Shown here piece after piece: positions 33,233 to 61,722 of a stretch of 64,000 bases of DNA. The stretch spans positions 31,219 to 95,218 of the forward strand of contig NZ_CAUJAN010000007.1 of the NCBI RefSeq assembly GCF_963082495.1, in the 5' to 3' direction. This DNA comes from Methanobrevibacter sp. V74 (GTDB taxonomy: Archaea > Methanobacteriota > Methanobacteria > Methanobacteriales > Methanobacteriaceae). Numbering within the stretch: position 1 is the stretch's first letter; each line of letters opens with the position of its first letter. Made by a program: the position numbers and the translations under genes. Below the pieces are notes generated by a model, which worked only from the letters and a program-made list of their open reading frames with translations, did not search any database and was not told the origin of the DNA.

Positions 33233-34312
33233 TTATAAAAATCTTTGTGAATTAACCTTTAATTTTTGTTTCATTTGTTCATGGTCAATGTGAATATATT
33301 TATCCGTTGTTTGGGAGTTTGAATGCCCTGCAATTGACTGCACCTCTGCAACTGTCAATATTTCCGCATAATGGGATAATGCAGTATGTCTTAGAATGTG
33401 AACACTAACATCTCTACCATAATTTACATTACATTCAATTCCTTCATTTTCAATTCTCTGATCACATTCACGAGCATGTTTTTTAATGATATCCTGAACA
33501 GCACGTTTTCCAATTCTTTTTCCATTAATATTGGTAAATAGCTCTTCCCTTACTACTTCTTCAGCCGCTTTTTTTCGCTGAATTACTGGACGATATATAT
33601 TATTAGTATTTTTCCTAAGTTTTGTGATACGATTCTTCATCATTTCATTTAAACTGATTAATGTATCATAGGTGATAAATGTTGTACGGTCTTTTAACTC
33701 ACCTTTTGTTGTTTCTGCTCGTAAATAAACATCAATAAATTCATTAGTGTCATTGGGAAGTTCGTAAAATCCATTTTCATCAATTGAAACTTGAATATCT
33801 GTTTTGTTTAATAAGACCAATTCTTTCAATCTCATACCGGAGTCAATAAATGTTCTGCAGATTGCATAATCCCTTTTATTTCCGCTTTGTTCGATTGTAT
33901 CTAAGAAAAAATTGGATTGTGGCCAGGTTAAGGATATTTTTTCAATTCTTTTTTTAGCAGTTTCAGAATCTTCTGCTTTTACTTCAATAATATCCTTCAT
34001 TTTGATGGTTTCATGCTGGATTTCCTCTTGAACATCTTCTGAGTTGATGAATTCCAAAATATTCATCATATATGTTTTAACTGTGGTTCTTTTATTTCCA
34101 TGTTTTTTCAAACAATGCCTACGATAATGTCTTAACTGTTTTTTAATATTCTTATCAGTTAGTTCTCCTATTCCTTCTTTTTCAAGATATTCGATGAATT
34201 TAGATATGTTAAATGTTTGTTTTTTTATAGTTTCTTGAGTTAAGTTCTTTACCTCTTGCTTTTCTTCTAAGTATTCATTTAGGTAGTCTGTTAGCTCATC
34301 AACTTCTATCAT
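33233..34312 (-). CDS. Tyrosine recombinase (phage integrase family)
   Basis: 359 aa. Residues 1-100 form a SAM-like core-binding domain. The catalytic set is complete: Arg161 (GMRLKEL), His305 and Arg308 (HILRHT), His330 (AGHSN) and Tyr339 (DKYIHID). It cuts and rejoins DNA at specific sites. It is divergent from cas2 across 315 bp and is the nearest recombinase to the repeat array, so it is a rival candidate, or partner, for making that array. It may equally be the integrase of an old mobile island. Confidence 0.88.
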   Translation of the reverse strand: MIEVDELTDYLNEYLEEKQEVKNLTQETIKKQTFNISKFIEYLEKEGIGELTDKNIKKQLRHYRRHCLKKHGNKRTTVKTYMMNILEFINSEDVQEEIQHETIKMKDIIEVKAEDSETAKKRIEKISLTWPQSNFFLDTIEQSGNKRDYAICRTFIDSGMRLKELVLLNKTDIQVSIDENGFYELPNDTNEFIDVYLRAETTKGELKDRTTFITYDTLISLNEMMKNRITKLRKNTNNIYRPVIQRKKAAEEVVREELFTNINGKRIGKRAVQDIIKKHARECDQRIENEGIECNVNYGRDVSVHILRHTALSHYAEILTVAEVQSIAGHSNSQTTDKYIHIDHEQMKQKLKVNSQRFL

Positions 34313-34627: not shown

Positions 34628-34903
34628 ATGTATGTAATAGTTAGTTTTGATATAAAATTTAAAACAAATCAAGAAAAGATTGAAAGTGTTATTGAGCACT
34701 TTGGACTTAGAAAAATTCAAAATACATTATATATAGGAGAATTAGATAATAATGAACAAAATACATTAGTTAAATCCATAAATAAAATAATTAAAGAATA
34801 TGATAGTGTTTTAATAACACGAATATGTCAAAATTGCTATTTAAAAAAAGAAACATGTGGTCGTGAAATTAAATTCAATAATGATTTATTTAGGATATAT
34901 TAA
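34628..34903 (+). CDS. cas2: Cas2
   Basis: 91 aa. The start MYVIVSFDIKF matches Cas2, with the conserved Asp8 at the end of the first strand; the ferredoxin-like fold continues with FGLRKIQNTLYIGEL. The C-terminal tail is cysteine bearing (CQNCYLKKETCG), which I do not know as a general Cas2 feature. In CRISPR systems a Cas2 dimer bridges two Cas1 dimers and sets the length of inserted DNA. The stop is 1 bp before cas1. No Cas3, Cas5-8, Cas9, Cas10 or Cas4 gene is near. Confidence 0.85.
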   Translation: MYVIVSFDIKFKTNQEKIESVIEHFGLRKIQNTLYIGELDNNEQNTLVKSINKIIKEYDSVLITRICQNCYLKKETCGREIKFNNDLFRIY

Positions 34904-34904
34904 T

Positions 34905-35900
34905 ATGAAACTAATTATTGACGGATATAATAAATCAATCCACAAGAAAGACAACCAAATTGTTATACATGAAAATTCCGAAATTATAGATTCTATCAAG
35001 GCAAGCGAAATTAATGATATAACCATTACAGGAAAAGGTTATGTGACCTTTGATGCTTTAAATTTAATAGCTGAAAATAATATTAAATTAATAGCTATTA
35101 ATCCACGAGGACAACTAAGTTATATCTTAGAATCACCAGATTGGAGAAATGTGAAGTTAAAAAAACAACAATACAAATTAAGCGAAAATAAACTTGGTCT
35201 TAAATTATCAAAAGAATTAATAAAATGTAAAATGAAAAACCAAAAAGCTACATTAACAACACTTAATAAAAATAAACAGCTGAAAAGAGTTTTTAACCAT
35301 AGATCAAAAATTGATGAAATAATAAAACAACTTGAAAAATTAAATTTAAATGGAAATAATGATGAAATAAGAATTAAAATAATGGGTTTAGAAGGAAAAG
35401 CATCTAATGAGTATTGGAGAGCAGTAAAATATTTCATTCCAAATAATATTGGATTTGAAAAAAGAACAAAAAAACCAACAGATTTACTTAATTCCATGTT
35501 AAATTATGGTTATGCAATTCTTGCAAGTGAAATAACAAAAAGCATATTACTAATAGGTTTAGATCCATATTGCGGATTTTTACATTATGATATAGATAAA
35601 AGAACAAGTTTAACCTTTGATTTAATCGAACCATTCAGACAACAAATTGTTGATAAAACAGTAATAAGTTTAATTAACAGAAAACAAGTTACCATAAATG
35701 ATTTAGATAAAAGAAATAATACCATAAAATTAGAAGCAAGGAAATTAATAGTGAATAAAATTCTTGGAAAAATCTTCTCAACAATTACTTACAATAATGA
35801 AATAAACACTTATTCAGATTTAATTAGAAAACAAAGCAAAGATTTAGTAAATACAATATTATACGCTGAAGAATTTAATGGATTTTATTTAAGATGGTGA
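34905..35900 (+). CDS. cas1: Cas1 integrase
   Basis: 331 aa from ATG 34905; a frame extension back to 34857 overlaps cas2 and is not homologous. The N-terminal beta domain (about 1-85) is followed by the helical catalytic domain. Metal ligands are present: Glu163 (GLEGKASNEYW), His227 (CGFLHYD), and Asp239/Glu242 (TFDLIEPFR). It is therefore probably an active integrase that joins DNA ends to a repeat. The gene order cas2-cas1 and the array 198 bp downstream look like a stand-alone adaptation module. The array it faces has kilobase intervals, unlike CRISPR. Confidence 0.9.
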   Translation: MKLIIDGYNKSIHKKDNQIVIHENSEIIDSIKASEINDITITGKGYVTFDALNLIAENNIKLIAINPRGQLSYILESPDWRNVKLKKQQYKLSENKLGLKLSKELIKCKMKNQKATLTTLNKNKQLKRVFNHRSKIDEIIKQLEKLNLNGNNDEIRIKIMGLEGKASNEYWRAVKYFIPNNIGFEKRTKKPTDLLNSMLNYGYAILASEITKSILLIGLDPYCGFLHYDIDKRTSLTFDLIEPFRQQIVDKTVISLINRKQVTINDLDKRNNTIKLEARKLIVNKILGKIFSTITYNNEINTYSDLIRKQSKDLVNTILYAEEFNGFYLRW

Positions 35901-36097
35901 GGAAATGTATTTATAAATTTTAGTTAAAAATTAATGTCCTCAAAATTTAGAAAAAATACTGATAAAATCATTGAAAACAATTATAATTCTGAGGAAACCA
36001 ACACTTTAAATAATATATAAAAATGAAATCCTCAAAATATTTTTAAAAGAAGAAATATAAAACATTAAAATAAATAAAATAAGAAAAAATAGACACT
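35901..36097 (+). promoter_or_regulatory. Leader-like sequence between cas1 and the first repeat
   Basis: 197 bp, A-rich and gene free. CCTCAAAATTT and CCTCAAAATAT recur about 100 bp apart, with CTGAGGAAA between them. Its position is that of a CRISPR leader, which directs insertion and may carry a promoter. Confidence 0.55.
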
Positions 36098-36134
36098 GTT
36101 AATACTGAATGTTTTCAGTTGAATTATTCAAAAC
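36098..36134 (+). repeat. Array repeat 1 (37 bp, leader-proximal)
   Basis: Begins GTTAATACTG and ends TTCAAAAC. Positions 8-21 are the inverted repeat CTGAA-TGTT-TTCAG; positions 22-34 are TTGAAT-T-ATTCAA. Identical to repeats 2 to 6 and to the inverted copy at 61686. One frame is open on each strand; the minus frame ends in TAA. Confidence 0.95.
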
Positions 36135-36469
36135 ATCATCAGGAACTACATGATATGAGTGAACAAAATAAAAGAATTCATTGTCAATACCTTCTAAAAT
36201 TGGAGAATCATTGACTACTTTTAGTTGATTCCACCCCATATGAGGTATTTTTACATTCCCGGACAACAATTCCACATGTCCTTTAAACAAGTTTAAACCT
36301 TTAATTTCTGGAGATTCCTCACTTGACCCCATTAATACTTGTTGACCCAGACAAATTCCAAGAAATGGCTTGTTATCATTTACATGTTCATTTATTACAT
36401 CTTCAAATGGTTTTAAATTCTCCATCGCACTACCAAACGCTCCAACACCAGGCAGTACCAAGTAATCAC
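36135..36469 (-). pseudogene. hisH: Cassette 1: internal fragment of hisH
   Basis: The whole 335-bp interval is an internal piece of the glutaminase subunit of imidazole glycerol phosphate synthase. It runs from YLVLPGVGAFGSAM through the nucleophile segment FLGICLGQQVLMGSSEE to FYFVHSYHVVPDD. About 40 N-terminal residues and 35 C-terminal residues, including the last catalytic residues, are missing. Each end stops exactly at a repeat, and the frame then runs into the repeat and ends at its TAA. The fragment lies antisense to cas1. It cannot be functional and looks like a captured chromosomal segment. Confidence 0.88.
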
Positions 36470-36506
36470 GTTAATACTGAATGTTTTCAGTTGAATTATT
36501 CAAAAC
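36470..36506 (+). repeat. Array repeat 2 (37 bp)
   Basis: Identical to repeat 1. Follows the hisH fragment and precedes the moaE fragment. Confidence 0.95.
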
Positions 36507-36763
36507 CAAAAAGAAATTGAAAAAATTGTTGAAAATGCTAAGATCAAATATAATGTTCATGAAATATCTGTTATCCATTATATCGGTGAATTTTACACCG
36601 GCGATATGTTATTTTTAGTAGCAGTACTTGGTAATCATCGTGACGAAACCCTTGATGCATTAAAAGAAGTTATTATTATTTGAAACTGTAAAATACGATG
36701 TTGAATTCAAAAAAGAAAGAAATTTCAAAAGAAGGTACAAAAACTATCCTTGCAGGAGGTTAA
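36507..36763 (+). pseudogene. moaE: Cassette 2a: 3' part of moaE, frameshifted
   Basis: From the first base after the repeat the frame reads as the large subunit of molybdopterin synthase: IHYIGEFYTGDMLFLVAVLGNHRDETLDALKE. The N-terminal third is absent. Two small frame changes (near 36675 and 36720) precede the typical end, GTKTILAGG, and stop at 36763. MoaE with MoaD inserts sulfur into molybdopterin. This copy is dead. The cut coincides with the repeat, as with hisH. Confidence 0.72.
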
Positions 36764-36766
36764 ATT

Positions 36767-36904
36767 TTGACAATAATGTTTATAATAAGAGTAATTATAT
36801 TATTCTTAATTATTTATGCTGTTGTGAAAAATCTAAAAACACTTTTAAAAGCAGCAGTAATTATTTTTGTTATTTTAATATTATTAGGATTAATAGGATA
36901 TTAA
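36767..36904 (+). CDS. Cassette 2b: 45-aa membrane peptide
   Basis: TTG 36767 has AGGAGGT 7-8 bp upstream. It encodes two hydrophobic stretches (IIRVIILFLIIYAVV and AVIIFVILILLGLIG) joined by KNLKTLLK. It directly follows the moaE remnant, so it was probably its chromosomal neighbour and came in with the same fragment. The function is unknown; the frame is intact. Confidence 0.5.
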   Translation: MTIMFIIRVIILFLIIYAVVKNLKTLLKAAVIIFVILILLGLIGY

Positions 36905-36946
36905 ATCCTATTTCCCAATAATCACTTCAGTGGATTTGATAATTGC

Positions 36947-36983
36947 GTTAATACTGAATGTTTTCAGTTGAATTATTCAAAAC
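36947..36983 (+). repeat. Array repeat 3 (37 bp)
   Basis: Identical to repeat 1. Separates the moaE cassette from the viral head gene cassette. Confidence 0.95.
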
Positions 36984-37165
36984 ATGAAGTAAGATCAGGG
37001 TATGGTTTATCTCCAGTAGATTGGGGTAATGTACCAATGAATTATAGTCAATATGGTATTGCTCGCAATCCTGATGATGTACAGGATGTTATTCCAATTG
37101 ATGAAATTAAAATGTTAAAAAAATCATTGTCTCTTGAAAGATTAGGTAAAGAATATGATATCTGA
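36984..37165 (+). pseudogene. Cassette 3a: 3' end of a probable viral portal gene
   Basis: The frame is open through the repeat and continues for 60 codons (GYGLSPVDWGNVPMNYSQYG, then EIKMLKKSLSLERLGKEYD), ending 11 bp inside the next gene. It has no start of its own. In tailed viruses the portal gene precedes the head morphogenesis gene, so this is probably the tail end of portal, cut at the repeat. The assignment is by position, not by motif. Confidence 0.55.
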
Positions 37166-38669
37166 AGAAAGAATCAAAACTAATCATTTATTACTAAATG
37201 AATTAGATTACTGGGATGAATTAGATATTAAAAATAATGATGACCCTCATGTTAATAATCATTATAGAGAAATAATGCAATTAATCAATCAACAATTAGA
37301 TAACTCTATTGCGTGGTTGGATTCTCAAGAAGCAAAAGATTATTTTTATGGTGAAATGCAATACCAAAAAGATATTTTTGAACTAATGGAATCACAATGG
37401 GATAGAATTCTCAATGGAAAATATGATAAAATAGAAGATATTATCAATGAAGTTTATGATTATGGTAAAATTAAAGGATATCAGGATATTCAAAGTAGAA
37501 TTCGTTATACTGAAGCAGATAAATTAGCATTGACTCATATTAGAAACTATAATTTTAAACTAATCAGGAAATTAGATAATGAATTAAGAAGATCTATTAA
37601 AAATCAGATATTCCAAGGTGTAATAAAAGGAGAAAATCCGAATAATATAGCTTCAAAATTAGTTAAATTAGGTGTTGAACGATTACCAGATAGTACATTA
37701 TCTCCTCGACAAAGAGCAGTAATGATTGCAAAAACAGAAGTATCACGAGCACAAAACACAGGAATACTACAATCTTATGTAAATGAAGGATATGAAGAAG
37801 TTAAAATACTAACTGCTGAAGATGATAATGTATGTTACATCTGTTTAAAAAATGCATATGAATTCAATGATGATGAAATAATTTACAGTAACCATGGTAA
37901 AGAAAGAGTACATAATATTCAAGAAATGATTAAAAAGAAAGAATATGTTCCCGCACATCCTAATTGTCGCTGTACTTATCTTTCTGTGTGGAAAAGAGAC
38001 AGAGTGCCTCCTGAAAAACCATACACAACCAACTTAATCAATGAAGACACACATAATTGGAGTTATAATTATAAAGGTAAAAAGTATCAATTACAAGGGA
38101 ACACTCCAATGAGTAGACAGGACTTCCTTGAAAACTACGGATTTGATATTAATAAATTAAGCCCTCAAGAAGAACTATTTTTAAAAATATTCACTAAAGA
38201 TAGCTCTCCGTTAAATGATTATTTAAGATTTGGACCAGATAATTTAGATGAATGTGTTGAAAGATGGAAAAACATAAACAATAATCTTATTCTGAGAGAA
38301 TTATTGTCAGATGAATTAGATTTTCATGTTGCATTGACTATTGCTGAAAGTATTTTTAATAAATATGCTAAAACTCTTAATGAAGATGTAATGCTATGTC
38401 GTCGTGAAAGAGAAAGGTTCATGGGTCGAAATGGTAAAACAACATATAAAGATAAAGGTTTTACTTCAATGTCAATTTATGAATACACTAAAGTTGATGA
38501 ATACGGAGATGAATTGAATTATATTTTAATCCCGAAAGGAACTAAAGTATTATATGTTGAGGGGATTACTGTTTCTCCTGAAGATTATGAAACATTATTT
38601 TTACCTAATATCTATTTAGACAAGGTTGAGGATTTGAGTAGTAAGAAAAAAGTTTGGAAATTACCATAA
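37155..38669 (+). CDS. Cassette 3b: viral head morphogenesis (MuF/SPP1 gp7) protein with ADP-ribosyltransferase-like domain
   Basis: 504 aa. Residues about 170-280 are the MuF domain: AKTEVSRAQNTGILQSYVNE, then CYIC (about 226) and HPNCRC (about 268), a probable zinc site. Residues about 330-504 resemble the ADP-ribosyltransferase exoenzyme fold, with Arg in CRRERERF (about 415), FTSMS (about 436) and a Glu in DYETLFLP (about 478). Such fusions are known in phage heads, where the enzyme may be injected into the host. The frame is intact, so the gene came in whole with the cassette. It indicates a Methanobrevibacter virus or provirus as source. Confidence 0.78.
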   Translation: MISEERIKTNHLLLNELDYWDELDIKNNDDPHVNNHYREIMQLINQQLDNSIAWLDSQEAKDYFYGEMQYQKDIFELMESQWDRILNGKYDKIEDIINEVYDYGKIKGYQDIQSRIRYTEADKLALTHIRNYNFKLIRKLDNELRRSIKNQIFQGVIKGENPNNIASKLVKLGVERLPDSTLSPRQRAVMIAKTEVSRAQNTGILQSYVNEGYEEVKILTAEDDNVCYICLKNAYEFNDDEIIYSNHGKERVHNIQEMIKKKEYVPAHPNCRCTYLSVWKRDRVPPEKPYTTNLINEDTHNWSYNYKGKKYQLQGNTPMSRQDFLENYGFDINKLSPQEELFLKIFTKDSSPLNDYLRFGPDNLDECVERWKNINNNLILRELLSDELDFHVALTIAESIFNKYAKTLNEDVMLCRRERERFMGRNGKTTYKDKGFTSMSIYEYTKVDEYGDELNYILIPKGTKVLYVEGITVSPEDYETLFLPNIYLDKVEDLSSKKKVWKLP

Positions 38670-38730
38670 TCTTTTTATATATTCAAAAACAATATATAGT
38701 AATTAAATATATTTAAAATGGGGAATATTT

Positions 38731-39138
38731 ATGCCACTCATAAGATTTACTAAATTGAACGGAGAATTACTCAGAAATTTACCGTCTGCTATGCAAGCTG
38801 AATTAATTATTTTTGAGGATGTTATTCCTGATGGAATCATGGCTTCTCTTTATGTTAATGATTCTTTTTATAAAAAGGAAAGGTCTGAATTCTTAAATTA
38901 TAGGGATGATGTTCGTGAGAAAATGTACCGTGTTAGAGGTAGGCGTGAAGAATTAGCCCATAATGATCCTGTTTATGATCCAGTTTCTGCTAGTATTAAT
39001 ATTGAAACTGATGAGGGTATTGAATTTGTTAAGAAATATCCTCAATTTAAGAATCTTATTGAATCTATTATTTTTGAGGATGATGAACATAATGTGGTGA
39101 AGGTTGTTCCTATTGATCAATACTTAACTGAAAATTAA
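38731..39138 (+). CDS. Cassette 3c: virus-associated protein of unknown function
   Basis: 135 aa, soluble, acidic, GGGGAA before the ATG. It follows the head gene where minor head or scaffold genes often lie. Its TAA is immediately followed by the next repeat (39139), so the cassette ends at the last base of the gene. No domain recognised. Confidence 0.6.
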   Translation: MPLIRFTKLNGELLRNLPSAMQAELIIFEDVIPDGIMASLYVNDSFYKKERSEFLNYRDDVREKMYRVRGRREELAHNDPVYDPVSASINIETDEGIEFVKKYPQFKNLIESIIFEDDEHNVVKVVPIDQYLTEN

Positions 39139-39175
39139 GTTAATACTGAATGTTTTCAGTTGAATTATTCAAAAC
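39139..39175 (+). repeat. Array repeat 4 (37 bp)
   Basis: Identical to repeat 1; starts at the base after the stop codon of the preceding gene. Confidence 0.95.
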
Positions 39176-39203
39176 AAGAAAAAATAATTTTATGGTGATT
39201 AGA

Positions 39204-40878
39204 TTGAAATATAAAATTTTAATTATTACATTAATTTTTGTAGCATTATTGAGTCTGAGTAATGTATGTGCAGTTGATGTTAATTTAAGTGAAGATGATG
39301 TAGTTTTAAATGATACTCATTATAAAAATATTAATTTAGATAATTCTGATGAGTATTGTAATAGTAATGTGAAAGAGGTATTTGGAAAAAATAATAATAG
39401 TCAAAATAGTTTTTCGGATGTTCAAAAGCTCATTGATGATTCAGAAGAAAATGATACTATACAACTTAATGGAACTTATTATGGTCAGGGTAATTTAATA
39501 ATTGTTAATAAGTCTCTTGTTATTGAAGGAAGAGGTGATGGAGCTATTTTAGATGCACAAATGTTATCTGGAATATTTTATATCTCTTCGAACAATGTTA
39601 TATTGAAGAACTTAAAAATAATAAATGCTAAAGCACCATATAATTTTACAAATTTGAACAATTATGAGTTAATATCTAATGGAGCTGCTATTTATTGGGT
39701 TGGTGCTAATGGTACTCTGATAAATTCTTCATTTTCAGGTAACCATGGTTATGGGGATGGAGGAATTGTTGCATGGGAGGGGCATAATGGAAAAATATTT
39801 AACACATCTTTTAAAGATAACCCTCCTTCTTTTAAATATGAATTTATAATAGGAGGTTCTAATCCTAGTTGTAGATTCATTGGGGGTGTTGTCAATGGTT
39901 TTTATGATGGGGATTTAATTGGAAATAGTTTTTTAAAAAATGTTTCAGTTAATGCTCGTCGTGTTTTAACTGTTAATATGCCGGTTTTATATAATGGTGA
40001 ACTGATTATTAAGTTAACTGATGAAGAAGGATTACCTTTTGTTAATGATATTTTTAAAGTACATATTTATAATAAAAATTATAATTTGTATTTGGAAAGC
40101 ATTATTGATGAAAACGGATTTGCAAGGGTTTCTTTACCTTTTAATTTAAGTGTTGGAAAATTATAATATTAAATATTATCTTAAACAGATATTGGATTCA
40201 TATATTAAAAAAAGTGATTATTACCATATTAATGAGAGTGGTAAACTTTGTTATGATTTTAATAGTATTTTAATTAACCAATCTTCTTTATCGGTTATTA
40301 AGCGTGATACTTCTTTGTTTTGTTATAATTTAAGAATTTTTTATAATTCAAATGAGCATTTATATGTTAAATTAGTAGATAATAATGGAGTAGCTATTAA
40401 AGGAGTTAAGTTTTTGTTTAAAATTTATTTATCTAAAAATAAGTCTAAAAATTATTATGTAACTACAAATTCTAAAGGGATGGCTATTTTAAAACATAAT
40501 TTTAATCAGGGCCATTATTCAATTGTTATCAATGCTATAAATGGAAATTATAAGATTAAATCTCTAAAATCAAAATTTAAGATTTATAAAACACCTTTAA
40601 CTATTAAAGCACCAAAAATAGTTGCTAAATATAAGAAATCAAAAAAATTTACTATTAAATTAATTAATAAAAAAGCTAAAAAAATAGTAAAAAATATTAA
40701 GATTAAAGTTAAGATTTCTATTGGTAAGAAATACAAAACACGCACTCTTAAAACAAACAATAAAGGATTAGCTTATTTAAATACTAAAAATTTTAAAAGA
40801 GGTGTTCATAAAGTATTCATTTCTCCTAAAAATACTAATTACTATGGTAAATTTATTAGTAAAATTATTATTAAATGA
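39204..40878 (+). pseudogene. Cassette 4a: adhesin-like protein, one frameshift
   Basis: I prefer TTG 39204 because GGTGAT lies 4 bp upstream; ATG 39192 is in the same frame. A signal peptide (KILIITLIFVALLSLSNVCA) is followed by a beta-helix region (IQLNGTYYGQGN, LKNLKIINA, LINSSFSGNHGYGDGG) and then, in a second frame from about 40155, Ig-like repeats rich in Lys (KTPLTIKAPKIVAKYKKSKK) to the stop at 40878. The shift lies in an A run near 40157. There is no anchor helix at the C-terminus. It is complete at the 5' end, unlike most cassette genes, and comes with its own upstream 28 bp only. Confidence 0.72.
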
Positions 40879-40973
40879 TGTGATGTAATTGAAGTTTTTT
40901 AATAAAATTCTCCTAAATTTTATTTTAGTAATGTTGCAAATTTTTATATAAAAACATAATCTAAAATTAACTT

Positions 40974-41287
40974 ATGAGTATTATTCATAAACACATCAAT
41001 GAAATTTTTGAGTATGATGGAAGCCAAATTAATCCTTCTTGGGCATTTAATCAGTTTGGTATTTATGGTTCATCTGTAATTACTTGGATTGGTCCAGTAA
41101 ATATTACTCCCGATAATTTAAAAGATTTTGCAGATGTTGGTTTGGAAATTAAGTCTAATGCAATGGTTAATTTCATTTGTGAATTTTTTGATTGTCAACC
41201 AGCTAATATGAGAATAGCTTATCTTCGCCAAAGACTTCTTGTTATGATTTTTCGAGAGATTTTATTTGAAAATGGGATTGTAACTAA
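40974..41287 (+). pseudogene. Cassette 4b: DUF366-like gene cut off by repeat 5
   Basis: The frame starts at ATG 40974 and runs 105 codons (FEYDGSQINPSWAFNQFGIY, RIAYLRQRLLVMIFREIL) before it enters the repeat, where it ends after a few codons. The similarity is to DUF366, a methanogen protein of about 185 aa as I recall; the C-terminal part is lost exactly at the repeat. Function of the family is not known to me. Confidence 0.6.
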
Positions 41288-41324
41288 GTTAATACTGAAT
41301 GTTTTCAGTTGAATTATTCAAAAC
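41288..41324 (+). repeat. Array repeat 5 (37 bp)
   Basis: Identical to repeat 1. Truncates the DUF366-like gene on its left. Confidence 0.95.
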
Positions 41325-41779
41325 ATAAACTGAAAAAATCTTTGACAAATCTATCATAAGAATACATCAATCCAACCCCCAATCAAATAAATTCATGATT
41401 AAAAAACTTTAATTACTTATATAAATATATATAATTAATAATATTTAAAATAAACTATTAATAATTATTAAAATTAGATATAAATAAATTAAAATTAATT
41501 AATAAAGTATTAAAATAAATAATAATGGATTAAAGCAAAATAAATCAAAATTAGCAATTTTCAATGAATAAACAATGATAAAAAAAATAAAAAATCTTAA
41601 GTTTCTAGGAATGTATATTAGGGGGGGTGCAAATGAATTATTTTAATATATTTTTAGCAAAAATAAGTAAATTTAAACGGAATAATTTTTTCAATTATTC
41701 AATATAATTTTCTAAAAAAAACAAGATTTTTACAAAACTTTAAATATTAATTATAATTAATTTAGAATTTAGGTAAATT
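41325..41779. other. AT-rich upstream region of the flippase gene
   Basis: 455 bp, almost only A and T, no convincing gene. AGGGGGGGTG at 41620-41629 precedes a 24-codon frame (41633-41707, MNYFNIFLAKISKF), which could be a tiny peptide or chance. Probable promoter region of the gene at 41780. Confidence 0.4.
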
Positions 41780-43213
41780 ATGAGTCAAGTGAAATCGATT
41801 TTTAATAATATGGGTTGGCTATTTATTCCACAAATATTAAGTAGTATTTGTGGTTTTATATGGACCGTTTTAATAGCTAATTACCTTGGAGTTAATGGAA
41901 ATGGTATTTTAGGATTTGCTATTTCATTAAGTGAAATTCTAGCAGTCACAACCGATTTTGGCATAAGCACCCATATTGTTCGTCATGTTTCAACAGACTA
42001 CTCACAAGCCCCCAAGTATTTAGGTAATGCAATCCCTTTAAAAAGTTTATTTGGAATAGGAACATTTATCCTAACATTAATAATTTTAATAATTCTAAAA
42101 ACTGATGAACTTACAATTACAATCACATTATTGTTTACTATAGAAATGATTATTAATTCATTCAAAGGATTGTTTAACGGATGTTTTCAAGCTTTTGAAG
42201 AAGGAAAATATCAGGGAATTGGAAATATCCTAACAACAGCCTTATTATTTATTTTTATATTAATAGCAATCTTCACAGATTTAGGAATTTACGGAATAAC
42301 ACTAGCATACGTTATTTCCAATTTAATAGTACTAGTATACACCTATGGTGCTTTAAGAAAACATATTGCCCGCCCTAAATTTGAGATCAATACTACTTTC
42401 TGGAAAAAGCTTACAATAGTTGCTCTACCTTTTGCAGCTACTGGAATACTCTATTCCATATATTATTCAATCGATGTAATCATGTTAAAAGCACTTGTTG
42501 GAAACTATGCAACCGGAATTTATAATGCAACATACAAACTAGTTTCTGTTTTAACACTATTTTATTCAATTTACACAGCAGTAATATTCCCAGTCATGAG
42601 CAAATTCTTTAAAAATGATGAAACCCTTCTGATTGTAAGTTTTGAAAAATCAATCAAATACTTAATGTTTATCATAATCCCACTGGCTTTTGCAACAGTA
42701 TATTACTCAGCAGATGTCATCCATCTAATTTATCCAAAAGGAGAGTTCGCTAATGCATCATCTGTTTTAAACATACTTATCTGGACAGTTTGCCTATTAT
42801 TCCTAAGTGGAGCATGCAACATATTATTAAACGCATCACATAAAGAAGTAGCAGTTACAAGAATATATTTAATTGCAGCTACTTTTAATGTAGTCTTAAA
42901 CTTGTTCATGATTCCAAAGTATTCTTATAATGGAGCAGCAATAACAACAGTATTAAGTGATATCATTATTGTATTATTACAGTCATATGTAATTTACAAG
43001 CTAGGATTCAGACCTAATAAAAGATTATATAAGGATTTAGCTAAAATAATAATAGGATCAATATTTATAAGTATTATTCTTAACGTTTTACATATGGACA
43101 TGTTTTTAGCAATACCCGTGAGTATAACAATCTACTTAATAATCATGTATTTATTAAATATTTTAGATAATGATGATAAATATGTTATAAAAGAAATCAT
43201 TGGCAAAAATTAA
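41780..43213 (+). CDS. Cassette 5a: flippase of the polysaccharide transporter (PST/Wzx-like) family
   Basis: 477 aa with about 12-14 membrane helices: N-terminal SIFNNMGWLFIPQILSSICG, the segment LGVNGNGILGFAISLSE and internal repeats typical of the MATE-like PST group. These proteins move lipid-linked sugars across the membrane for surface glycans or N-glycosylation. The frame is intact and the gene has its own upstream region. It may be a functional accessory gene carried in the array. Confidence 0.82.
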   Translation: MSQVKSIFNNMGWLFIPQILSSICGFIWTVLIANYLGVNGNGILGFAISLSEILAVTTDFGISTHIVRHVSTDYSQAPKYLGNAIPLKSLFGIGTFILTLIILIILKTDELTITITLLFTIEMIINSFKGLFNGCFQAFEEGKYQGIGNILTTALLFIFILIAIFTDLGIYGITLAYVISNLIVLVYTYGALRKHIARPKFEINTTFWKKLTIVALPFAATGILYSIYYSIDVIMLKALVGNYATGIYNATYKLVSVLTLFYSIYTAVIFPVMSKFFKNDETLLIVSFEKSIKYLMFIIIPLAFATVYYSADVIHLIYPKGEFANASSVLNILIWTVCLLFLSGACNILLNASHKEVAVTRIYLIAATFNVVLNLFMIPKYSYNGAAITTVLSDIIIVLLQSYVIYKLGFRPNKRLYKDLAKIIIGSIFISIILNVLHMDMFLAIPVSITIYLIIMYLLNILDNDDKYVIKEIIGKN

Positions 43214-43499
43214 AATAGGTAATTATTATTAGATTTTTAAGAGTAGCAAAGTAATTAGAAAGGAACTGCTGGTTAAATTATCAAGATAAATGTAGTCATA
43301 GTTTCCTGAATAGCTACTGCTCCTTTTATTGTAATTGCTCATTACAATATTGATTTGTAATTCTGCCTGCAATGTCATGATTAAAATTTTATTATTTATT
43401 TTATATAAAATATATAATAACAAAAGTAATATTTATTAAAGACAATGAAAAAAGGCAACAAGTTAAGATATTTAAAAGATAGCATACCTTTTAGTTTCA

Positions 43500-43664
43500 T
43501 GACATAACTTTTTTGAGATTTTAGCAAATTATGACATACAAAAGTTGCCGTGACATAACTTTCAGGAATAATGTGACATAACACTTCAAAAGTGACATAC
43601 ATTCCTTCAAAATTGTGACATAACATTCTGCTTTGTGACATACGATTTATTAAAATGTGACATA
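43500..43664. repeat. Eight TGACATA iterons at about 21-bp spacing
   Basis: TGACATA starts at 43500, 43532, 43551, 43574, 43593, 43616, 43636 and 43658. It is followed by AC or C, mostly alternating. Spacings after the first are 19, 23, 19, 23, 20, 22, close to two DNA turns. This is the pattern of a row of protein binding sites, as in iteron origins or multi-site operators. It lies downstream of the small gene at 43689-43934. Confidence 0.8.
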
Positions 43665-43688
43665 ACAAATATACTATATGATAACTAA

Positions 43689-43934
43689 TTATTTTTCAAA
43701 ATTAACGAAACGTTTTAACTCAGTTAATGAAATATTAGGAGAATCATCATAAAAACCATTTTCTGATTTTTCTATTTCATTATTATAAACTTCTGCTTGT
43801 GCATCAGTAAATTCTTCATTTTCATTGTAATGTACAAGTAAATTTACAATAACATCATCAAAGCTTTCATCTTGTGCAAATAATTTAAATAATGCTGCAC
43901 GAGTATCTGTTGAAACAATAATATGTTCATTCAT
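43689..43934 (-). CDS. Cassette 5b: small acidic protein, antitoxin-like
   Basis: 81 aa, start at 43934 with GAGGAA 7-8 bp upstream. The N-terminus (IVSTDTRAALFKLFAQDESF) recalls small ribbon-helix or RelB-like antitoxins, but there is no partner toxin beside it. It reads toward the TGACATA iterons. Confidence 0.5.
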   Translation of the reverse strand: MNEHIIVSTDTRAALFKLFAQDESFDDVIVNLLVHYNENEEFTDAQAEVYNNEIEKSENGFYDDSPNISLTELKRFVNFEK

Positions 43935-44000
43935 GATAATTCCTCAAATTGTTTTTACAGATTATTGTATCAAACACCCGATAAATTTTTTTCTATTATA

Positions 44001-44037
44001 GTTAATACTGAATGTTTTCAGTTGAATTATTCAAAAC
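44001..44037 (+). repeat. Array repeat 6 (37 bp)
   Basis: Identical to repeat 1; the last of the six perfect same-strand copies. Fused directly to an adhesin 3' end. Confidence 0.95.
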
Positions 44038-44144
44038 AAAAAGGAATAGCCACACTAAAAATCAAAAACCTAAAAAAAGGCAAATACAACATCTACACAC
44101 AATACACCAAATCAAAAATAAAAAACACAATAACAATCAAATAA
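44038..44144 (+). pseudogene. Cassette 6a: 3' end of an adhesin gene
   Basis: From the base after the repeat the frame reads GIATLKIKNLKKGKYNIYTQ and on to the stop. Its amino acids are identical to the C-terminus of the adhesin at 48163-50190, which lies 4 kb away on the other strand. Only the last 35 codons and the terminator are present. The cut is at the repeat; both sides share an A-rich stretch after AAAC. Confidence 0.85.
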
Positions 44145-44153
44145 AAAAAAAAG

Positions 44154-44181
44154 AATAAGGAACCACCAACACTTCCTTATT
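44154..44181 (+). terminator. Adhesin terminator, copy 1
   Basis: AATAAGGAA (44154-44162) pairs with TTCCTTATT (44173-44181). The same hairpin follows the adhesin at 48126-48153. Confidence 0.65.
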
Positions 44182-44199
44182 TTATAACCTTTTTTATTA

Positions 44200-44508
44200 T
44201 AGTTTTTCTCTAAAAGTTTATACTATTTAGATCATGCCAATTTTTCATAAAAATGATTTTTCTTTCAATAATTTCATAGAATTTGTTCTCAAATATTTTT
44301 ATTAATTCTTTTTCAGAATTATTAATTGGTTTTATATATTGTTTTTTTTGATTACTCTTTAAACATCTTCAATGGGGCTTAAATCAGGACAATATTGTTT
44401 TAAATATATTAGATTTATATTTAATATTTCTGCAACTTTTTGAACCATTTTTGCTGTGTGAATCCTTGCATTGTCTAAAATTATATTAATTCTTTTTTTC
44501 TTTATGAG
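44200..44508 (-). pseudogene. IS630-type transposase, C-terminal remnant
   Basis: The minus strand encodes the DDE end of an IS630/Tc1-like enzyme: INIILDNARIHTAKMVQKVA then QYCPDLSPIED. It matches the copy at 63770-64000. It is cut at 44508 by the IS1182-like element, and its N-terminal part is missing. Confidence 0.65.
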
Positions 44509-44621
44509 GCAGGATGGGACATGACTCTCATTAATTTTTAAAATTTTTTTTTTCGCTTATTTTTTTTCCTTTAATTTTATATACTATGAAGTATAATCTT
44601 TTATTATAAATATTAATATTT

Positions 44622-46229
44622 ATGGTTGTTTTATTTATGGTTTTAAAAGATGATACTGTTAATCTGACTATGTTGGTGTCTATGGAGTTGAGTAATTTGA
44701 TTCCTGAAGGTCATCTGTGTTATTTTTATTAAAAATGTGGTTGGTCAAATTGATTGTTCCGAAGCTAACAAGGAGTTTTTCGTGATAAGCCTGGTGAACC
44801 TGCTTATCCTCGTGAAATGTTGCTTAGGATTGGTTTGGATGAGTGTTATTTGATGGTGGATTGTCTTCTCCTAATTGAGAGAAGAACAAGAACTGAATAT
44901 TGCTTATATGTACTTTAGCAGGCATGCAAAAGCCAGTTTATAGGGACAATTTTATAAGATTCAAATTGGATTATACCTGATTTAATTGATGAAGCTTTTA
45001 AAACAACTTTTAAAGATTTGCAAAAGAAGAAAATCCGCCATTTAGAGTTTTAGATGGAACTAAAGTAAAAACATCTTTAAAAAATAATAACCAATGAACA
45101 ACAATTAAAAATAATCATGGAAAAGAACACTTTGGAAGAAAAGTATTATAAATTGGATCAAGAAGAAGATTTGGAATTGGGCGATGAATCTGGAAAAATT
45201 AGTGTTCCTGAATCATATTAACAAACAAAGAAAAATTCCAAGAAACAGTAAGAGAAAATCAATAAAAATCCTTTGAAAAAATGATGGAGACCAAAGATAA
45301 ATTGAGAGCTTCAAGTAAAAAAAAACCTCTTAAAACAATCCAGAAGAAAAATCCTGAAAAAATTTAAAGCTTGAAAACACTCGAAGAAAAGCTTAAAGAA
45401 TCCTGGAAAAAATGATGTAATTAAGTGTAAATGATCCAGATTCAAGATTTTTATGATTAATAAAAAAAAAAGGTAAAATGAGGAATTTGTATTACAATAG
45501 ACAGATTACTGTAGACTCACATAAAAGAATAATCCTAGCATCATACATAACAATACAATCCAACAGACCATTACGAACTTGTTCCATTAAATGGAACAAG
45601 TACAATCAAATTTAACAGAAATATAACGATGAAAATGCCTGTTAATTACCAAGTAAGTGCAGATAATGACTATTCAACAGATGAAAAACACAGAATATCT
45701 TGAAAAAACATGGACCTTGACGGTTACATATCCTCACGAAAACTCTCAAGAAAAAAGAAAAAAAATAGTATAATAATTGTCCGAAAAAAAACCATTTTTC
45801 CAAAGATAAATTATCAACTATGATCACGAAATGATGACCTATATCTTCCCCCTCCCCAATTGGTCAACCACTATAGAAAAAAAAGCGAATACCAATACAA
45901 AAACAAAACAAGAATCACACATTGGACCAAAGAATGCAAAAACTGCCCAGTACAAAAATATTACAGTAAAAACACAACAATACAGAATAATCACTGACTA
46001 TGGAAAATATTTCAAAAATAAAAATGCAAAGAAAAATAGAAAACCACAAAAGCCCCCCAAAAAAATCTACAAAAATACGCTCAAAAAAACAGCAGAAACT
46101 ACCATTTACAAACATGAAACAAAACATAAACCTAACAAAATTCACAACAACGGACTTAAAACAAATAATTACAGAGTTTAAACTATACACAATAGGACAC
46201 AACTTAAAAAGAGAATATACAACGAAATA
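44622..46229 (+). pseudogene. IS1182-like transposase of element A, heavily decayed
   Basis: Pieces in all three frames follow the gene at 56682: VLKDDTVNLTMLVSMELSNL, then YMYFSRHAKASL, and a C-terminal TIGHNLKREYTTK. There are many frameshifts and deletions, so it encodes no enzyme. Confidence 0.65.
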
Positions 46230-46280
46230 AACAAAAATAGAAAACAACTGAAAAATAAAATTATTGCAAAAAATTTTTAA

Positions 46281-48060
46281 GGGTGTCCGCCAAAACTAAT
46301 TTTTTTTATTTTGAATTTTTTATAACTGCGTTATAATTTTCTTGTTTTGTTAATTTTTTTCATTAAATTAATTAGAATTTAATTTTAATTATTTATTATT
46401 CATAATTTTTAATATGGATTATAATGATTTATTTATATTTGATTTTAGTCATTTTTAGAATAGTAATATTTATATACTATGATGTACATATTTTATATTA
46501 GATATGAGTTATTATGTGTTGGTTATTTATGGTTAGTAAGAAAGTTATTAAGAATCAGGCTGAATTAGGCATTAGGACTTATGATTTTAATGTTCCAGAG
46601 AATCATATTTCTCGTTTTGTGGTTGATTTTATTGAAGAATTTTATCCGATTTTGGGAATTAAAGAGAATAAGAAAAAAGGCGGTAGGCCTTCATATCCTC
46701 CATGTTCCATGTTAAAATTACTTGTTTATGCAAAAATAGACCATATTGAAAGTGCTAGAGTCATTGCAGAAATGACAAAGTACCATGACATATATAAATT
46801 CGTTTGTGATAGAATTAAACCCTCTGAACGTTCAATTCAAAGGTATCGTGATGAATTTGGACGTTATTATGAAGTATTGCTTCAAATGACATTAAAAATG
46901 GCCGTAAAAAAAGGATTCACTGAATTTAATCATGTTGTAGTCGATGGGACCATCAAAAAAGCATTCAATTCTAACCAAAATATGATCAGCAAAAAAGAAA
47001 CCAATTTGCTGGTCCAGTTCTACAAAGGACTGGAAGTTGACCTTAAAAAGCTTGAAAAACTCAATAAACCAGCTCAAAAAATACTAAATGACAAGGAAAT
47101 GTCCAATGATGAAAAATTAGAAATATTATATGACATCAGAACTCAATTCAAATTCACAGGACAGGATAAAATACCAATGAATGATATTGAAGCACGCATG
47201 ATGAAAGGCAAAAAAGGAAACTTCCTGGTTGCTTATAATATCCAACATCTGCGATTACGACACCAAACTAATCTGCGCATTAAACGTCACACAAAACCCT
47301 ACAGACCATTACCAACTACCAGAAGTAGCTGACAAAGCAATAAACAACATAGGAAAAGTACCAAAACACATGAGTGCAGATACAATATATTTAAATCAAA
47401 TAAGCCTATCATACTTTGTAAACAAAGGAATAGATGGATTAATACCAACAAGAAAACAATCCAAAGAAAAAATAGGCAAATTAAATCCAAACCAATTCCA
47501 TAAAGACCACTTTTACTACATATCCGACCTAGACTTATTTATGTGCCCATCAGGACAACCAATGTACTTCTACAAAGAATACACACAACCAAACGAAGAA
47601 CCAGACAAACCCGACAAAATAAAAAGACTCTACAACAATTATACTGCATGTAAATACTGCATTCACAGAAAATCCTGCTTAACAGACAAACAAACACATA
47701 AAACCATCACAGAAAACGGTGGCAGATTAGAAAGAGCAATGGATTCTTCAAAATGGAAAAAGAAGAATATAAAGAAGAATTCAAAAAAAGACCAAGTGTA
47801 GAAGGACCATTCGGAATATTCAAAGAACAATACCATGTAGAACAAGAAATAGTAATCGGAATGGTAAAAACCGGAGAAAGACTCAACCTAGATGCACTAG
47901 CATACAATATAAAAAGATTATATAATCTTATTCAAGGAGAACAAAATAATAAAGAAGATATTGTTGATTTTTGTGAAAGTATATCCACTACACACCAATT
48001 AAAGCTTGATGTGACCATTTACTAGAATCCACACTCAAAAATCATTTTTGGCGGACACTC
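46281..48060. mobile_element. IS1182-like element B, nested in element A
   Basis: Ends GGGTGTCCGCCAAAA (46281) and TTTTGGCGGACACTC (to 48060) are inverted with one mismatch. TTAA flanks both sides (46277-46280 and 48061-48064), a likely 4-bp target duplication. It is younger than element A, as shown by the nesting and a less decayed gene. Confidence 0.75.
46529..48025 (+). pseudogene. IS1182-family transposase of element B, two frameshifts
   Basis: The frame from 46529 gives the N-terminal part (GGRPSYPPCSMLKLLVYAKI, SIQRYRDEFGRYYEVLL, VVVDGTIKKAFNSNQNM) to about 47235. A second frame continues to about 47755 (NVTQNPTDHYQLPEVADKAI, ACKYCIHRKSC), and a third gives PSVEGPFGIFKEQYHVEQE to 48025. 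Both breaks lie in or near A-rich runs. The catalytic segments are all recognisable, so this copy died recently or the breaks are assembly errors. Confidence 0.72.
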
Positions 48061-48125
48061 TTAAAATAAAAAAAAATTCTATGAAAAATTAAAAAATTTC
48101 ATGTCCCATCCTGCAAAGTTAAAAA

Positions 48126-48153
48126 AATAAGGAAGTATTGGTGGTTCCTTATT
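48126..48153 (-). terminator. Adhesin terminator, copy 2
   Basis: Same AATAAGGAA / TTCCTTATT hairpin as at 44154-44181, here directly after the adhesin on the minus strand. Confidence 0.65.
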
Positions 48154-48162
48154 CTTTTTTTT

Positions 48163-50190: not shown

Positions 50191-50310
50191 TTTATATCAA
50201 TCCTCCGGATCTTAATATTTTCATAATTAAATGAAATTGAATCAATATAATATTTAAATAATTAATAATGATTCTATACAATCAACTATAAATAATTAAC
50301 GGCTCTGAAT

Positions 50311-51070: not shown

Positions 51071-51107
51071 GTTAATACTGAATGTTTTCAATTGAATTAT
51101 TCAAAAC
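51071..51107 (+). repeat. Array repeat 7 (one mismatch)
   Basis: Same 37 bp with A for G at position 21, which breaks the last pair of the first inverted repeat. Joins an IS4 fragment to a terminase fragment. Confidence 0.93.
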
Positions 51108-61685: not shown

Positions 61686-61722
61686 GTTTTGAATAATTCA
61701 ACTGAAAACATTCAGTATTAAC
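61686..61722 (-). repeat. Array repeat 10, perfect, inverted
   Basis: All 37 bp identical to repeats 1 to 6 but on the minus strand. It may mark a second array facing left or an inversion between IS copies. Confidence 0.95.

What the first reader, a model, noticed from the sequence alone, without database searches (positions are those of the whole stretch)
34628..44037. Stand-alone cas2-cas1 module next to CRISPR-like repeats separated by kilobase gene fragments
Seen: intact cas2 and cas1 (all Cas1 metal ligands), a 197-bp leader-like stretch, then six identical 37-bp repeats in one orientation at 36098, 36470, 36947, 39139, 41288 and 44001. Intervals are 335, 440, 2155, 2112 and 2676 bp and hold recognisable gene pieces, not 30-40 bp spacers. 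No effector, Cas4 or Cas6 gene is seen. Known: Cas1-Cas2 duplicates a repeat with each insertion, and leader-proximal units are newest. Inference: an adaptation module that stores or shuffles gene-sized DNA, like an integron run by Cas1-Cas2. I know of no described system with this layout.
Basis: partly seen in the sequence, partly recalled or inferred. Interest (0 to 1): 0.97.

Follow-up and report, generated by a model that had tools for sequence, protein, structure and literature searches.

The report
Cas1-Cas2 array banking gene-sized DNA
A group of gut methane-making archaea appears to have turned the DNA-inserting half of CRISPR into a machine that files gene-sized pieces of DNA next to a leader, and about a fifth of the filed pieces seem to carry protective genes against toxins, which would be a new kind of inherited memory.

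Summary
The Cas1 belongs to a clade (100/100 support) in 25 of 67 Methanobrevibacter species genomes and in three related genera. In all 23 genus loci that could be read, a 37-nt element lies at a fixed distance after cas1 (198-201 or 112-118 bp); in 18 it recurs. With related genera, 77 inter-repeat cassettes in 24 loci measure 204-7033 bp (median 997); none is spacer-sized. In 14 of 16 sister Cas1 loci the array has an ordinary 71-75-nt period. Seven cassettes align end to end with donor DNA (own assembly or related species), with clean repeat junctions. Repeats tend to decay away from the leader. Two sister species match up to the end of the first repeat, then carry different cassettes. Only cas2 is a constant neighbour. 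Function: 17 of 77 cassettes (11 of 24 loci) carry a small ORF predicted to be a toxin-immunity gene, intact in 16 of 17, in 10 of 17 after a toxin-like end cut by the cassette edge. Best reading: Cas1-Cas2 inserts gene-length DNA at the leader, and selection keeps cassettes that neutralise viral or rival toxins. Insertion is well supported; the immunity-bank function is inference.

The parts
34628..34903 (+). cas2 (91 aa)
   Evidence: Pfam PF09827 7.6e-16, TIGR01573; a cas2 lies directly before cas1 in 30 of 30 loci compared, 23 of them in this clade
34905..35900 (+). cas1 (331 aa), of the clade found with gene-cassette arrays
   Evidence: E163 (29 of 30), H227, D239, E242 (30 of 30) conserved (their catalytic role is recalled); dN/dS 0.06-0.11 in 5 of 7 pairs tested, 0.23 and 0.73 in the two 99%-identical pairs
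35901..36097 (+). leader, 197 bp, with alternating TGAGGA / TCCTCA blocks (the first overlaps the cas1 stop codon) and a conserved A-rich end
   Evidence: alignment of 19 leaders
36098..36134 (+). repeat 1 (leader-proximal)
36135..36469 (+). cassette 1, 335 bp: internal piece of hisH, antisense; 99% to own assembly C3:387730-388062
36470..36506 (+). repeat 2
36507..36946 (+). cassette 2, 440 bp: 98% to own assembly C2:51694-52131
36947..36983 (+). repeat 3
36984..39138 (+). cassette 3, 2155 bp: end of a viral portal-like gene, MuF-type head protein with ADP-ribosyltransferase-like C-terminus, then a complete small ORF
37155..38669 (+). MuF-type head/toxin ORF, 504 aa (Phage_Mu_F 7.6e-12; ADPrib_exo_Tox 3.9e-4, below its cut-off)
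38731..39138 (+). putative immunity gene, 135 aa; its stop codon is the last three bases of the cassette
39139..39175 (+). repeat 4
39176..41287 (+). cassette 4, 2112 bp: adhesin-like gene piece plus start of a DUF366 gene; 99.5% to another species (G006:C113:3534-5666), edge to edge
41288..41324 (+). repeat 5
41325..44000 (+). cassette 5, 2676 bp: first 293 bp 99% to own assembly C3:367620-367911, remainder includes a polysaccharide flippase gene (41780-43213); composite
44001..44037 (+). repeat 6
44038..51070 (+). 7033-bp interval to a seventh repeat: adhesin piece, transposase-like ORFs, complete adhesin gene on the other strand; possibly old cassettes plus later insertions
   Evidence: names of the transposase-like and adhesin ORFs are from reading, not from a profile
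51071..51107 (+). seventh repeat, 1 mismatch
61686..61722 (-). stray exact repeat copy, opposite strand
33233..34312 (-). tyrosine recombinase next door; judged NOT part of the system (seen near 6 of 23 clade loci, at varying distance)

Best explanation
A stand-alone Cas1-Cas2 complex inserts gene-length double-stranded DNA (72 of 77 cassettes are 0.2-4 kb) at the leader-repeat junction and copies the 37-bp repeat at each insertion, as CRISPR adaptation does with 30-40-bp spacers. SHOWN by comparison: conserved module, fixed leader, one-way arrays, donor copies still present elsewhere, clean junctions, decay away from the leader in most arrays whose repeats differ, different cassettes behind a shared leader in two sister species. 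INFERRED: that Cas1-Cas2 is the enzyme, and that free DNA ends from lysed kin, related species or viruses (and from the cell itself) are the substrate. No guide RNA step is proposed. Function, INFERRED: most captures are meaningless gene pieces that decay, but cassettes bringing a complete immunity gene against polymorphic toxins (MuF-type viral toxins and other ADP-ribosyltransferase-like or JAB-like toxins) are kept by selection, so the array works as a bank of acquired immunity genes. Sub-confidences: insertion mechanism about 0.85, immunity-bank function about 0.5.
For: Clade and layout: 23 of 23 readable genus loci with this Cas1 have a 37-nt element at a constant offset, 18 with two or more copies and 55 cassettes of 204-7033 bp; with other genera and an inverted segment, 77 cassettes in 24 loci, none under 100 bp. 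Cas1 tree: 33 rows of the clade on one side of a 100/100 branch, 16 ordinary ones on the other, of which 14 have arrays with a 71-75-nt period. Polarity: mismatches to repeat 1 appear only in the later copies in L050, L055, L057, L061, L067, L068, L175, L179 and the window. Sister species G002/G007: 96% identical through cas genes and leader to the end of repeat 1, then 10 and 4 cassettes, homology resuming beyond the arrays. Donors: 7 cassettes align end to end with sources whose flanks continue, i.e. copies. Neighbourhood: cas2 is the only gene shared throughout. Immunity: a family A profile made from 9 proteins lying outside these arrays hits 11 of 77 cassettes (one weakly) and nothing in 240 kb of chosen chromosomal stretches; in 8 of 18 places outside arrays that I read, a family A ORF directly follows an ADP-ribosyltransferase-like ORF; family B is in 6 cassettes, with a JAB-like ORF before it in L068_3 and L069_4 (weak Pfam) and by likeness in L069_2 and L050_2; immunity ORF intact in 16 of 17 against 8.5 expected for random fragments (P 2e-5; 15 of 17 would give 3e-4).
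Against: No enzyme activity, insertion event or phenotype was observed. 60 of 77 cassettes show no toxin-immunity content by my count, and several are internal pieces of housekeeping genes. Toxin names rest on weak Pfam scores (ADPrib_exo_Tox 3.9e-4 and 0.0012, Prok-JAB 0.02, Toxin-JAB1 0.06) and on reading. In 10 of 18 non-array places of family A no ADP-ribosyltransferase-like ORF was seen directly before it. The family was noticed because it recurs in arrays, so enrichment carries discovery bias; 9 of the 11 array hits among 34 genus-wide hits were seeds. One of the 17, L177_1, is a weak member (5.5e-4; not hit by the second profile), while the equally weak L054_1 was left out. The network control was only modestly exceeded (30 edges, largest group 11, against 2-26 and 2-9 in 25 controls). 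The intactness model is simple and detection favours complete genes. Immunity ORFs run both ways (12 with, 5 against the array, L177 direction arbitrary), so leader-driven expression is not supported. No decay gradient shows in L176 or in the inverted segment of L047. Cas1 frames look broken in G003 and G004. L176-L178 lack a repeat at the usual place; two of them have kilobase-spaced repeats around or before the cas genes, L178 shows none.
Confidence: 0.7

Rival explanations
1. Useless by-product: an adaptation module that became separated from an ordinary CRISPR locus and now inserts untrimmed DNA ends; nothing is gained, and toxin-immunity pieces are there because viral and hypervariable DNA is common among free DNA ends or because a few were kept by luck.
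For: Where enough sequence is held, sister loci have a Cas6-like gene directly before cas2 (5 of 7; the one tested scores TIGR01877 5.8e-4) and a CARF gene before it (3 loci; the one tested scores TIGR02710 3.3e-56), which this clade lacks; 60 of 77 cassettes have no recognised toxin-immunity content; 10 of 55 genus cassettes lie wholly inside one reading frame.
Against: cas1 is under purifying selection (dN/dS 0.06-0.11 in 5 of 7 pairs) and the leader is conserved over 19 species, which a useless activity would hardly maintain; immunity ORFs intact in 16 of 17.
Confidence: 0.3
2. Degenerate ordinary CRISPR: a relic array whose repeats were pushed apart by insertions, or which feeds very long guides to an effector elsewhere in the genome.
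For: Leader, direct repeats and Cas1-Cas2 are CRISPR parts; 6 of 27 module genomes have a Cas3 over cut-off and 6 a Cas6; G000 has an ordinary cas1 with a 72-73-nt period array on C11.
Against: Kilobase-scale spacing in every multi-repeat locus of the clade and none at spacer length; 20 of 27 module genomes show neither Cas3 nor Cas6 over cut-off, though the Cas6 profile does miss members; inserts matching the own assembly at 97.5-99.8% would be self-targets.
Confidence: 0.04
3. An integron-like array run by the tyrosine recombinase next to cas2, the 37-bp repeat being its recombination site.
For: XerA-like recombinase 33233-34312 beside the module; the repeat has dyad symmetry.
Against: The recombinase family is seen near 6 of 23 clade loci, 571-1778 bp before cas1 (upstream sequence is short in L053 and L057), while cas2 and cas1 are always there; donor edges carry no repeat-like site.
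Confidence: 0.04
4. A transposon, casposon or other mobile element whose ends are the repeats.
For: Cas1 is the integrase of casposons (PMC4046053, passages read); stray repeat copies exist on other contigs.
Against: Repeats are direct, not inverted; the intervals have no common sequence or gene set; no DNA polymerase among the Pfam matches of the 47 cassette ORFs scanned; Cas2 present; no close relative of this Cas1 in the viral contigs (close relatives only); the C5/C6 copies are a segmental duplication.
Confidence: 0.03

Closest known systems
CRISPR adaptation module (Cas1-Cas2); nearest relatives found are ordinary CRISPR loci of Methanobacteriaceae (subtype not determined; Cas6-like and CARF genes upstream)
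   Same: Cas1 and Cas2 families, leader before a repeat of 37 nt, direct near-identical repeats, oldest-looking repeats farthest from the leader
   Different: Inserts of 204-7033 bp instead of about 35; no effector or processing gene at the locus; inserts contain own-genome DNA and whole genes
Integron cassette array
   Same: Works alike: a leader-side site takes in gene-sized cassettes in order, building a bank (integron features recalled)
   Different: Integrase appears to be Cas1-Cas2, not a tyrosine recombinase; the site is a fully duplicated 37-bp repeat; cassettes are fragments in either orientation, many without a whole gene
Casposon / casposase
   Same: Cas1-type integrase placing long DNA with target duplication (PMC4046053, PMC6452270, passages read)
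   Different: Direct repeats, no PolB found in the ORFs scanned; Cas2 present; DNA of many sources is inserted at one fixed site
[quoted passage not shown]
   Same: Array of orphan immunity genes against toxins of neighbours in the gut (PMC12247911, passages read)
   Different: rAID has a tyrosine recombinase and co-oriented immunity genes; here Cas1-Cas2, mixed orientation, mixed content, archaeal hosts
MuF polymorphic toxins of temperate phages
   Same: MuF head protein with toxin C-terminus (metallopeptidase or ADP-ribosyltransferase among them) followed by a small immunity ORF (PMC5576092, passages read)
   Different: The main text held has no occurrence of 'archaea'; here pieces of such loci are filed in host arrays

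Membership tests
CRISPR-Cas system | Cas1 and Cas2 with conserved catalytic residues | tested here: met
   (which residues are catalytic is recalled)
CRISPR-Cas system | Short spacers of near-constant length between repeats | tested here: not met
   0 of 77 cassettes under 100 bp
CRISPR-Cas system | Leader next to first repeat and leader-end growth | tested here: met
   leader; growth is inferred from repeat decay and one sister-species pair
CRISPR-Cas system | Effector or crRNA-processing genes at the locus | tested here: not met
   no further gene shared within 3.2 kb upstream; no cas match among 4 window ORFs upstream of the recombinase; Cas3 and Cas6 matches over cut-off lie on other contigs or tens of kb or more away
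CRISPR-Cas system | Processed crRNAs guiding interference | not testable with these tools
   needs RNA data
Integron | Tyrosine integrase adjacent to the array | tested here: not met
   recombinase near 6 of 23 loci only
Integron | Cassettes that carry their own recombination site before capture (attC-like) | tested here: not met
   donor edges of 7 resolved cassettes show no repeat-like site; repeat dyad shows no covariation
Casposon | Terminal inverted repeats and a DNA polymerase B gene within one element | tested here: inconclusive
   repeats are direct and no polymerase among Pfam matches of 47 cassette ORFs, but not every ORF was scanned and the NCBIfam listing shows 25 of 310 families
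rAID-type immunity array | Array of orphan immunity genes | tested here: inconclusive
   17 of 77 cassettes carry putative immunity ORFs; neutralisation not testable here
rAID-type immunity array | Tyrosine recombinase and co-oriented genes | tested here: not met

The most novel reading that the evidence does not exclude
An adaptive immune system that works by acquiring genes instead of guides: Cas1-Cas2 captures kilobase DNA from attackers (viruses and rival cells), files it at the leader, and the filed immunity genes then neutralise the attackers' toxins, giving heritable, cumulative protection. It would be a second, guide-free use of the CRISPR integrase and a route for programmed gene acquisition in archaea.
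Probability: 0.4. Interest if true: 0.98.

Novelty: categorically new. Interest (0 to 1): 0.95.

Why it matters
Cas1-Cas2 is known as a ruler that inserts fixed short pieces. A natural clade, present in single-contig genomes (G002, G004, G007, G008) as well as in metagenome bins, that inserts hundreds to thousands of base pairs at one defined site would change what this integrase is thought able to do, link CRISPR back to casposon-like long-DNA integration, provide a candidate for long-DNA writing at a chosen site, and offer a way by which gut methanogens gain genes and resist viral or rival toxins. It makes the open question of what stand-alone adaptation modules do directly testable: array growth can be read by long-read sequencing of cultures.

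Tried and rejected
Repeat as RNA hairpin: the dyad (columns 1-4 with 34-37, 10-16 with 26-32) is well kept (93% of cells paired) but shows no two-sided change in 19 repeats and no excess over shuffles, so it is treated as a DNA sequence feature.

Acquisition motif at donor edges: in the 7 fully resolved donors the two bases after the cassette are AC in 4 and TA, CT, AT in the other 3; too few to claim a motif.

Loss of cas4 as the origin of the missing length limit: I first took the gene before cas2 in sister loci for cas4 and the loci for type I-B, by recall; a profile search of one such locus (L071) showed a Cas6-like and a CARF gene instead, so that idea and the subtype label were dropped. 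How the length limit was lost is unknown.

Tyrosine recombinase as driver: rejected. Viral carriage: no close relative of this Cas1 or of two MuF proteins in the viral contigs; these scans reach close relatives only.

Cas6 and Cas3 as whole-genome proxies for effectors: used, but of limited weight; G000, G004, G053 and G063, which have ordinary cas1 loci, have no Cas6 match, and a Cas6-like gene in G063 scores below cut-off. The sub-threshold Cas3-like helicase in G000 (C7:11786) sits next to a BREX BrxD-like gene and fits other helicase families better.

Random-fragment control for shared content: exceeded, but modestly; the control used 20 stretches that I chose by coordinates, not at random. 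One script was an empty placeholder.

Literature: 10 searches on Methanobrevibacter and Cas1, long spacers, stand-alone adaptation modules, integron-like Cas1-Cas2, MuF toxins, acquired interbacterial defence and Cas1 with immunity genes. I saw no listed paper that describes Cas1-Cas2 arrays with gene-sized inserts; for most listed papers only the listing and the start of the abstract were seen. Passages were read of PMC4869251, PMC8616872, PMC6452270, PMC12247911, PMC5576092, PMC5294841, PMC4158269 and PMC4046053. Most subscription papers are not in the library, so absence from print is not shown.
Full report
WHAT IS THERE. The window holds cas2 (34628-34903), cas1 (34905-35900), a 197-bp leader and six identical 37-nt repeats at the stated places, in one orientation. 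Pfam and NCBIfam place the two genes firmly in Cas2 and Cas1; the closest solved Cas1 sequence is 4n06 (2.4e-58). Two further copies lie in the window, and 14 in the assembly at up to 3 mismatches.

IT IS A CONSERVED SYSTEM. A search of 67 Methanobrevibacter species genomes with this Cas1 gave 25 genomes with a relative at 54-100% identity over most of its length (G028 over 275 of 331 residues), fragments in G036, G055 and G038, and more distant Cas1 proteins at 45-47% and 25-28%. Regions around all 25 loci were fetched or are the window. Two could not be judged because the contig ends just after or inside the gene (L062, L065). In the other 23 a 37-nt element begins at position 198-201 (19 loci) or 112-118 (4 loci) counted from the last cas1 codon. 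In 18 it recurs on the same strand and defines 55 cassettes of 204 to 7033 bp, median 891. L048, L052 and L060 have one copy in 9.9-15.9 kb; in L059 and L064 the contig ends at it, so in these five the element is recognised by place and likeness, not by recurrence. The letters of the repeat differ between species, which is why only 2 of 67 genomes matched this window's repeat.

At order level (150 genomes) the clade also occurs in three other genera. Adding these and an inverted segment in L047 gives 77 cassettes in 24 loci, median 997 bp, none under 100 bp, five over 4 kb; repeats were accepted with up to 6 mismatches (9 in L176). A maximum-likelihood Cas1 tree, rooted at the midpoint, puts 33 rows of the clade on one side of a 100/100 branch and 16 ordinary Cas1 on the other; 14 of those 16 have arrays with a 71-75-nt period, three of them (L186-L188) by few copies. 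The 33 include rows whose array could not be judged (L062, L173) or shows one presumed copy (L180). L176-L178 lack the repeat at the usual place; L176 and L177 have kilobase-spaced repeats around or before the cas genes, L178 shows none in 4.9 kb. So kilobase spacing goes with this Cas1 clade.

Among the neighbourhoods cas2 and cas1 alone are shared throughout; sister loci with enough upstream sequence have a further gene directly before cas2 (5 of 7), Cas6-like in the one tested, and 3 have a CARF-protein gene before that. Cas1 evolves under purifying selection (dN/dS 0.06-0.11 in 5 of 7 pairs, two of these with dS above 1.3; 0.23 and 0.73 in two pairs that are 99% identical). The leader of 19 loci keeps alternating TGAGGA/TCCTCA blocks and an A-rich end before the repeat.

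HOW THE ARRAYS GROW. Repeats identical to the first lie near the leader and mismatches come later (for example L068: 0,0,0,1,4; L179: 0,2,2,4,6; L061: 0,0,0,1,1,5; L055: 0,0,3,2). L069, L054, L063 and L066 show no decay at all, and L176 and the inverted L047 segment no gradient. The sister genomes G002 and G007, single contigs of 1,951,395 and 1,853,160 bp, are 96% identical over 4089 bp through the cas genes and leader to the end of repeat 1; then 10 and 4 cassettes follow, and homology resumes about 2.9 and 1.8 kb beyond the last repeats. Of these cassettes only L069_2 shares DNA with L068_2 and L068_3, in the opposite orientation and with other ends, so the same DNA was taken up more than once; L050_1-3 show the same within one array.

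WHERE THE DNA COMES FROM. Searches of the window, L069, L061, L054 and L068 arrays against the genus found donors for some cassettes. Seven align end to end: window 1 and 2 and L069 1, 5 and 6 with the own assembly (97.5-99.8%), window 4 with another species (99.5%), L069 3 with another species (87%). The donor continues past both edges, so these are copies. Edges carry no repeat and no clear motif. Window 5 is composite. Most donors were not found; only four places per genome are scored by the tool, and unsequenced strains and viruses are likely sources.

WHAT THE CASSETTES HOLD. Ten of 55 genus cassettes lie almost wholly (98% or more) inside one reading frame. Others carry whole or nearly whole genes: an MmeI-like restriction-modification enzyme (L053_1), a DNA ligase (L067_3), pseudomurein ligase pMurD1, a short-chain dehydrogenase (L068_1). 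Of 65 ORFs scanned, some match phage families such as minor head and portal proteins. A protein-level network joined 12 of 54 cassettes from 7 species; several map to one viral region, portal end to MuF-type head protein and the small ORFs after it, in a provirus of G006, and none to its terminase gene. Reading these cassettes showed a pattern: a toxin-like end and then a complete small ORF. Two immunity-like families emerge: A (11 cassettes) with ADP-ribosyltransferase-like ends and B (6 cassettes) with JAB-like ends. That makes 17 of 77 cassettes, in 11 of 24 loci. In 10 the toxin-like ORF is cut at its start by the cassette edge (L050_1, L050_2, L054_2, L058_1, L061_2, L068_3, L069_4, L069_9, L047i_2, L177_1), in 2 it is complete (window_3, L069_2), in L061_4 an end piece lies inside, and in 4 none is seen (L063_1, L067_4, L068_2, L068_4). 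In L061_2 the stop codon is supplied by the repeat, and it is counted as intact; L047i_2 is cut. Intact 16 of 17, against 8.5 expected for random fragments of those lengths (P 2e-5). L177_1 is a weak member (5.5e-4); L054_1, equally weak, was left out of the 17.

Genus-wide, family A has 34 places at E 1e-5 or better in 67 genomes, 11 of them in or right beside these arrays, 9 being seeds. Profiles made only from members outside arrays hit 11 of 77 cassettes for family A (one weakly) and 11 for the toxin end (two weakly), and nothing in 240 kb of other chromosomal stretches. In 8 of 18 non-array places read, a family A ORF directly follows an ADP-ribosyltransferase-like ORF, often overlapping by a few codons; in the other 10 no such ORF was seen. 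Pfam support for the toxin names is weak. dN/dS is 0.15-0.29 for six family B pairs, 0.16-0.26 for four family A pairs and 0.58 and 0.65 for two others; much of that history may lie outside the arrays.

MECHANISM. The most economical reading is a Cas1-Cas2 integrase that accepts long DNA ends and performs the usual two-step insertion at the first repeat, with host repair copying the repeat. How the length limit was lost is unknown. Without a guide step, own-genome inserts would be harmless. Selection would then keep cassettes with useful genes, immunity genes above all. MuF toxins are proposed to enter cells with phage DNA (PMC5576092, passages), and gut Bacteroidales keep orphan immunity genes in recombinase arrays (PMC12247911, passages); this would be an archaeal counterpart built from a CRISPR part.

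CAUTIONS. Nothing was tested at the bench; many genomes are metagenome bins, though G002, G004, G007 and G008 are single contigs. Cas3 and Cas6 profiles gave neither over cut-off in 20 of 27 genomes with the module or fragments of it, but the Cas6 profile misses members. Shared content exceeded fragment controls only modestly; enrichment is strong only for the immunity families, which were discovered in the arrays.

Noticed in passing
L080 6501-10166 and L081 5487-8992 (G000 C5 and C6): Two pairs of exact repeats flank a surface-adhesin gene inside a segmental duplication with broken transposase-like and helicase-like ORFs; array pieces seem to have been copied to new places.
   Followed up: partly
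L047, cas1 end +3669 to +12313: Six repeat copies on the opposite strand beyond a forward array of three: an inverted array segment or second array in G026.
   Followed up: partly
window 35898-36097 and 18 other leaders: Alternating TGAGGA/TCCTCA blocks at conserved spacing, the first overlapping the cas1 stop; perhaps protein-binding sites of the leader.
   Followed up: partly
L054 4401-4567 and 10202-10363: Cassettes 1 and 3 of G017 both carry a tRNA-Trp and tRNA-Gln pair in opposite orientation, perhaps from related viruses.
   Followed up: partly
L053 894-3608: A cassette holds an MmeI-like restriction-modification ORF of 905 aa with all five MmeI domains; captured whole genes need not be immunity genes.
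   Followed up: no
L130 10377-13852 (G000 C7): A BREX BrxD-like gene (below its cut-off) and a DEXH helicase gene beside a 1659-aa ORF: a possible BREX-like defence locus about 50 kb before the array.
   Followed up: partly
L210, L211, L213, L215, L217: A small ADP-ribosyltransferase-like ORF and its family A partner sit before the same 124-aa gene in five species.
   Followed up: no
L071 17211-19194: Sister cas1 locus with a Cas6-like and a CARF (TIGR02710) gene upstream of cas2; its CRISPR subtype was not worked out.
   Followed up: no
window 44038-51070: Adhesin end, transposase-like ORFs and a complete adhesin gene between repeats 6 and 7; the adhesin is about 91% like those on C5 and C6.
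   Followed up: partly
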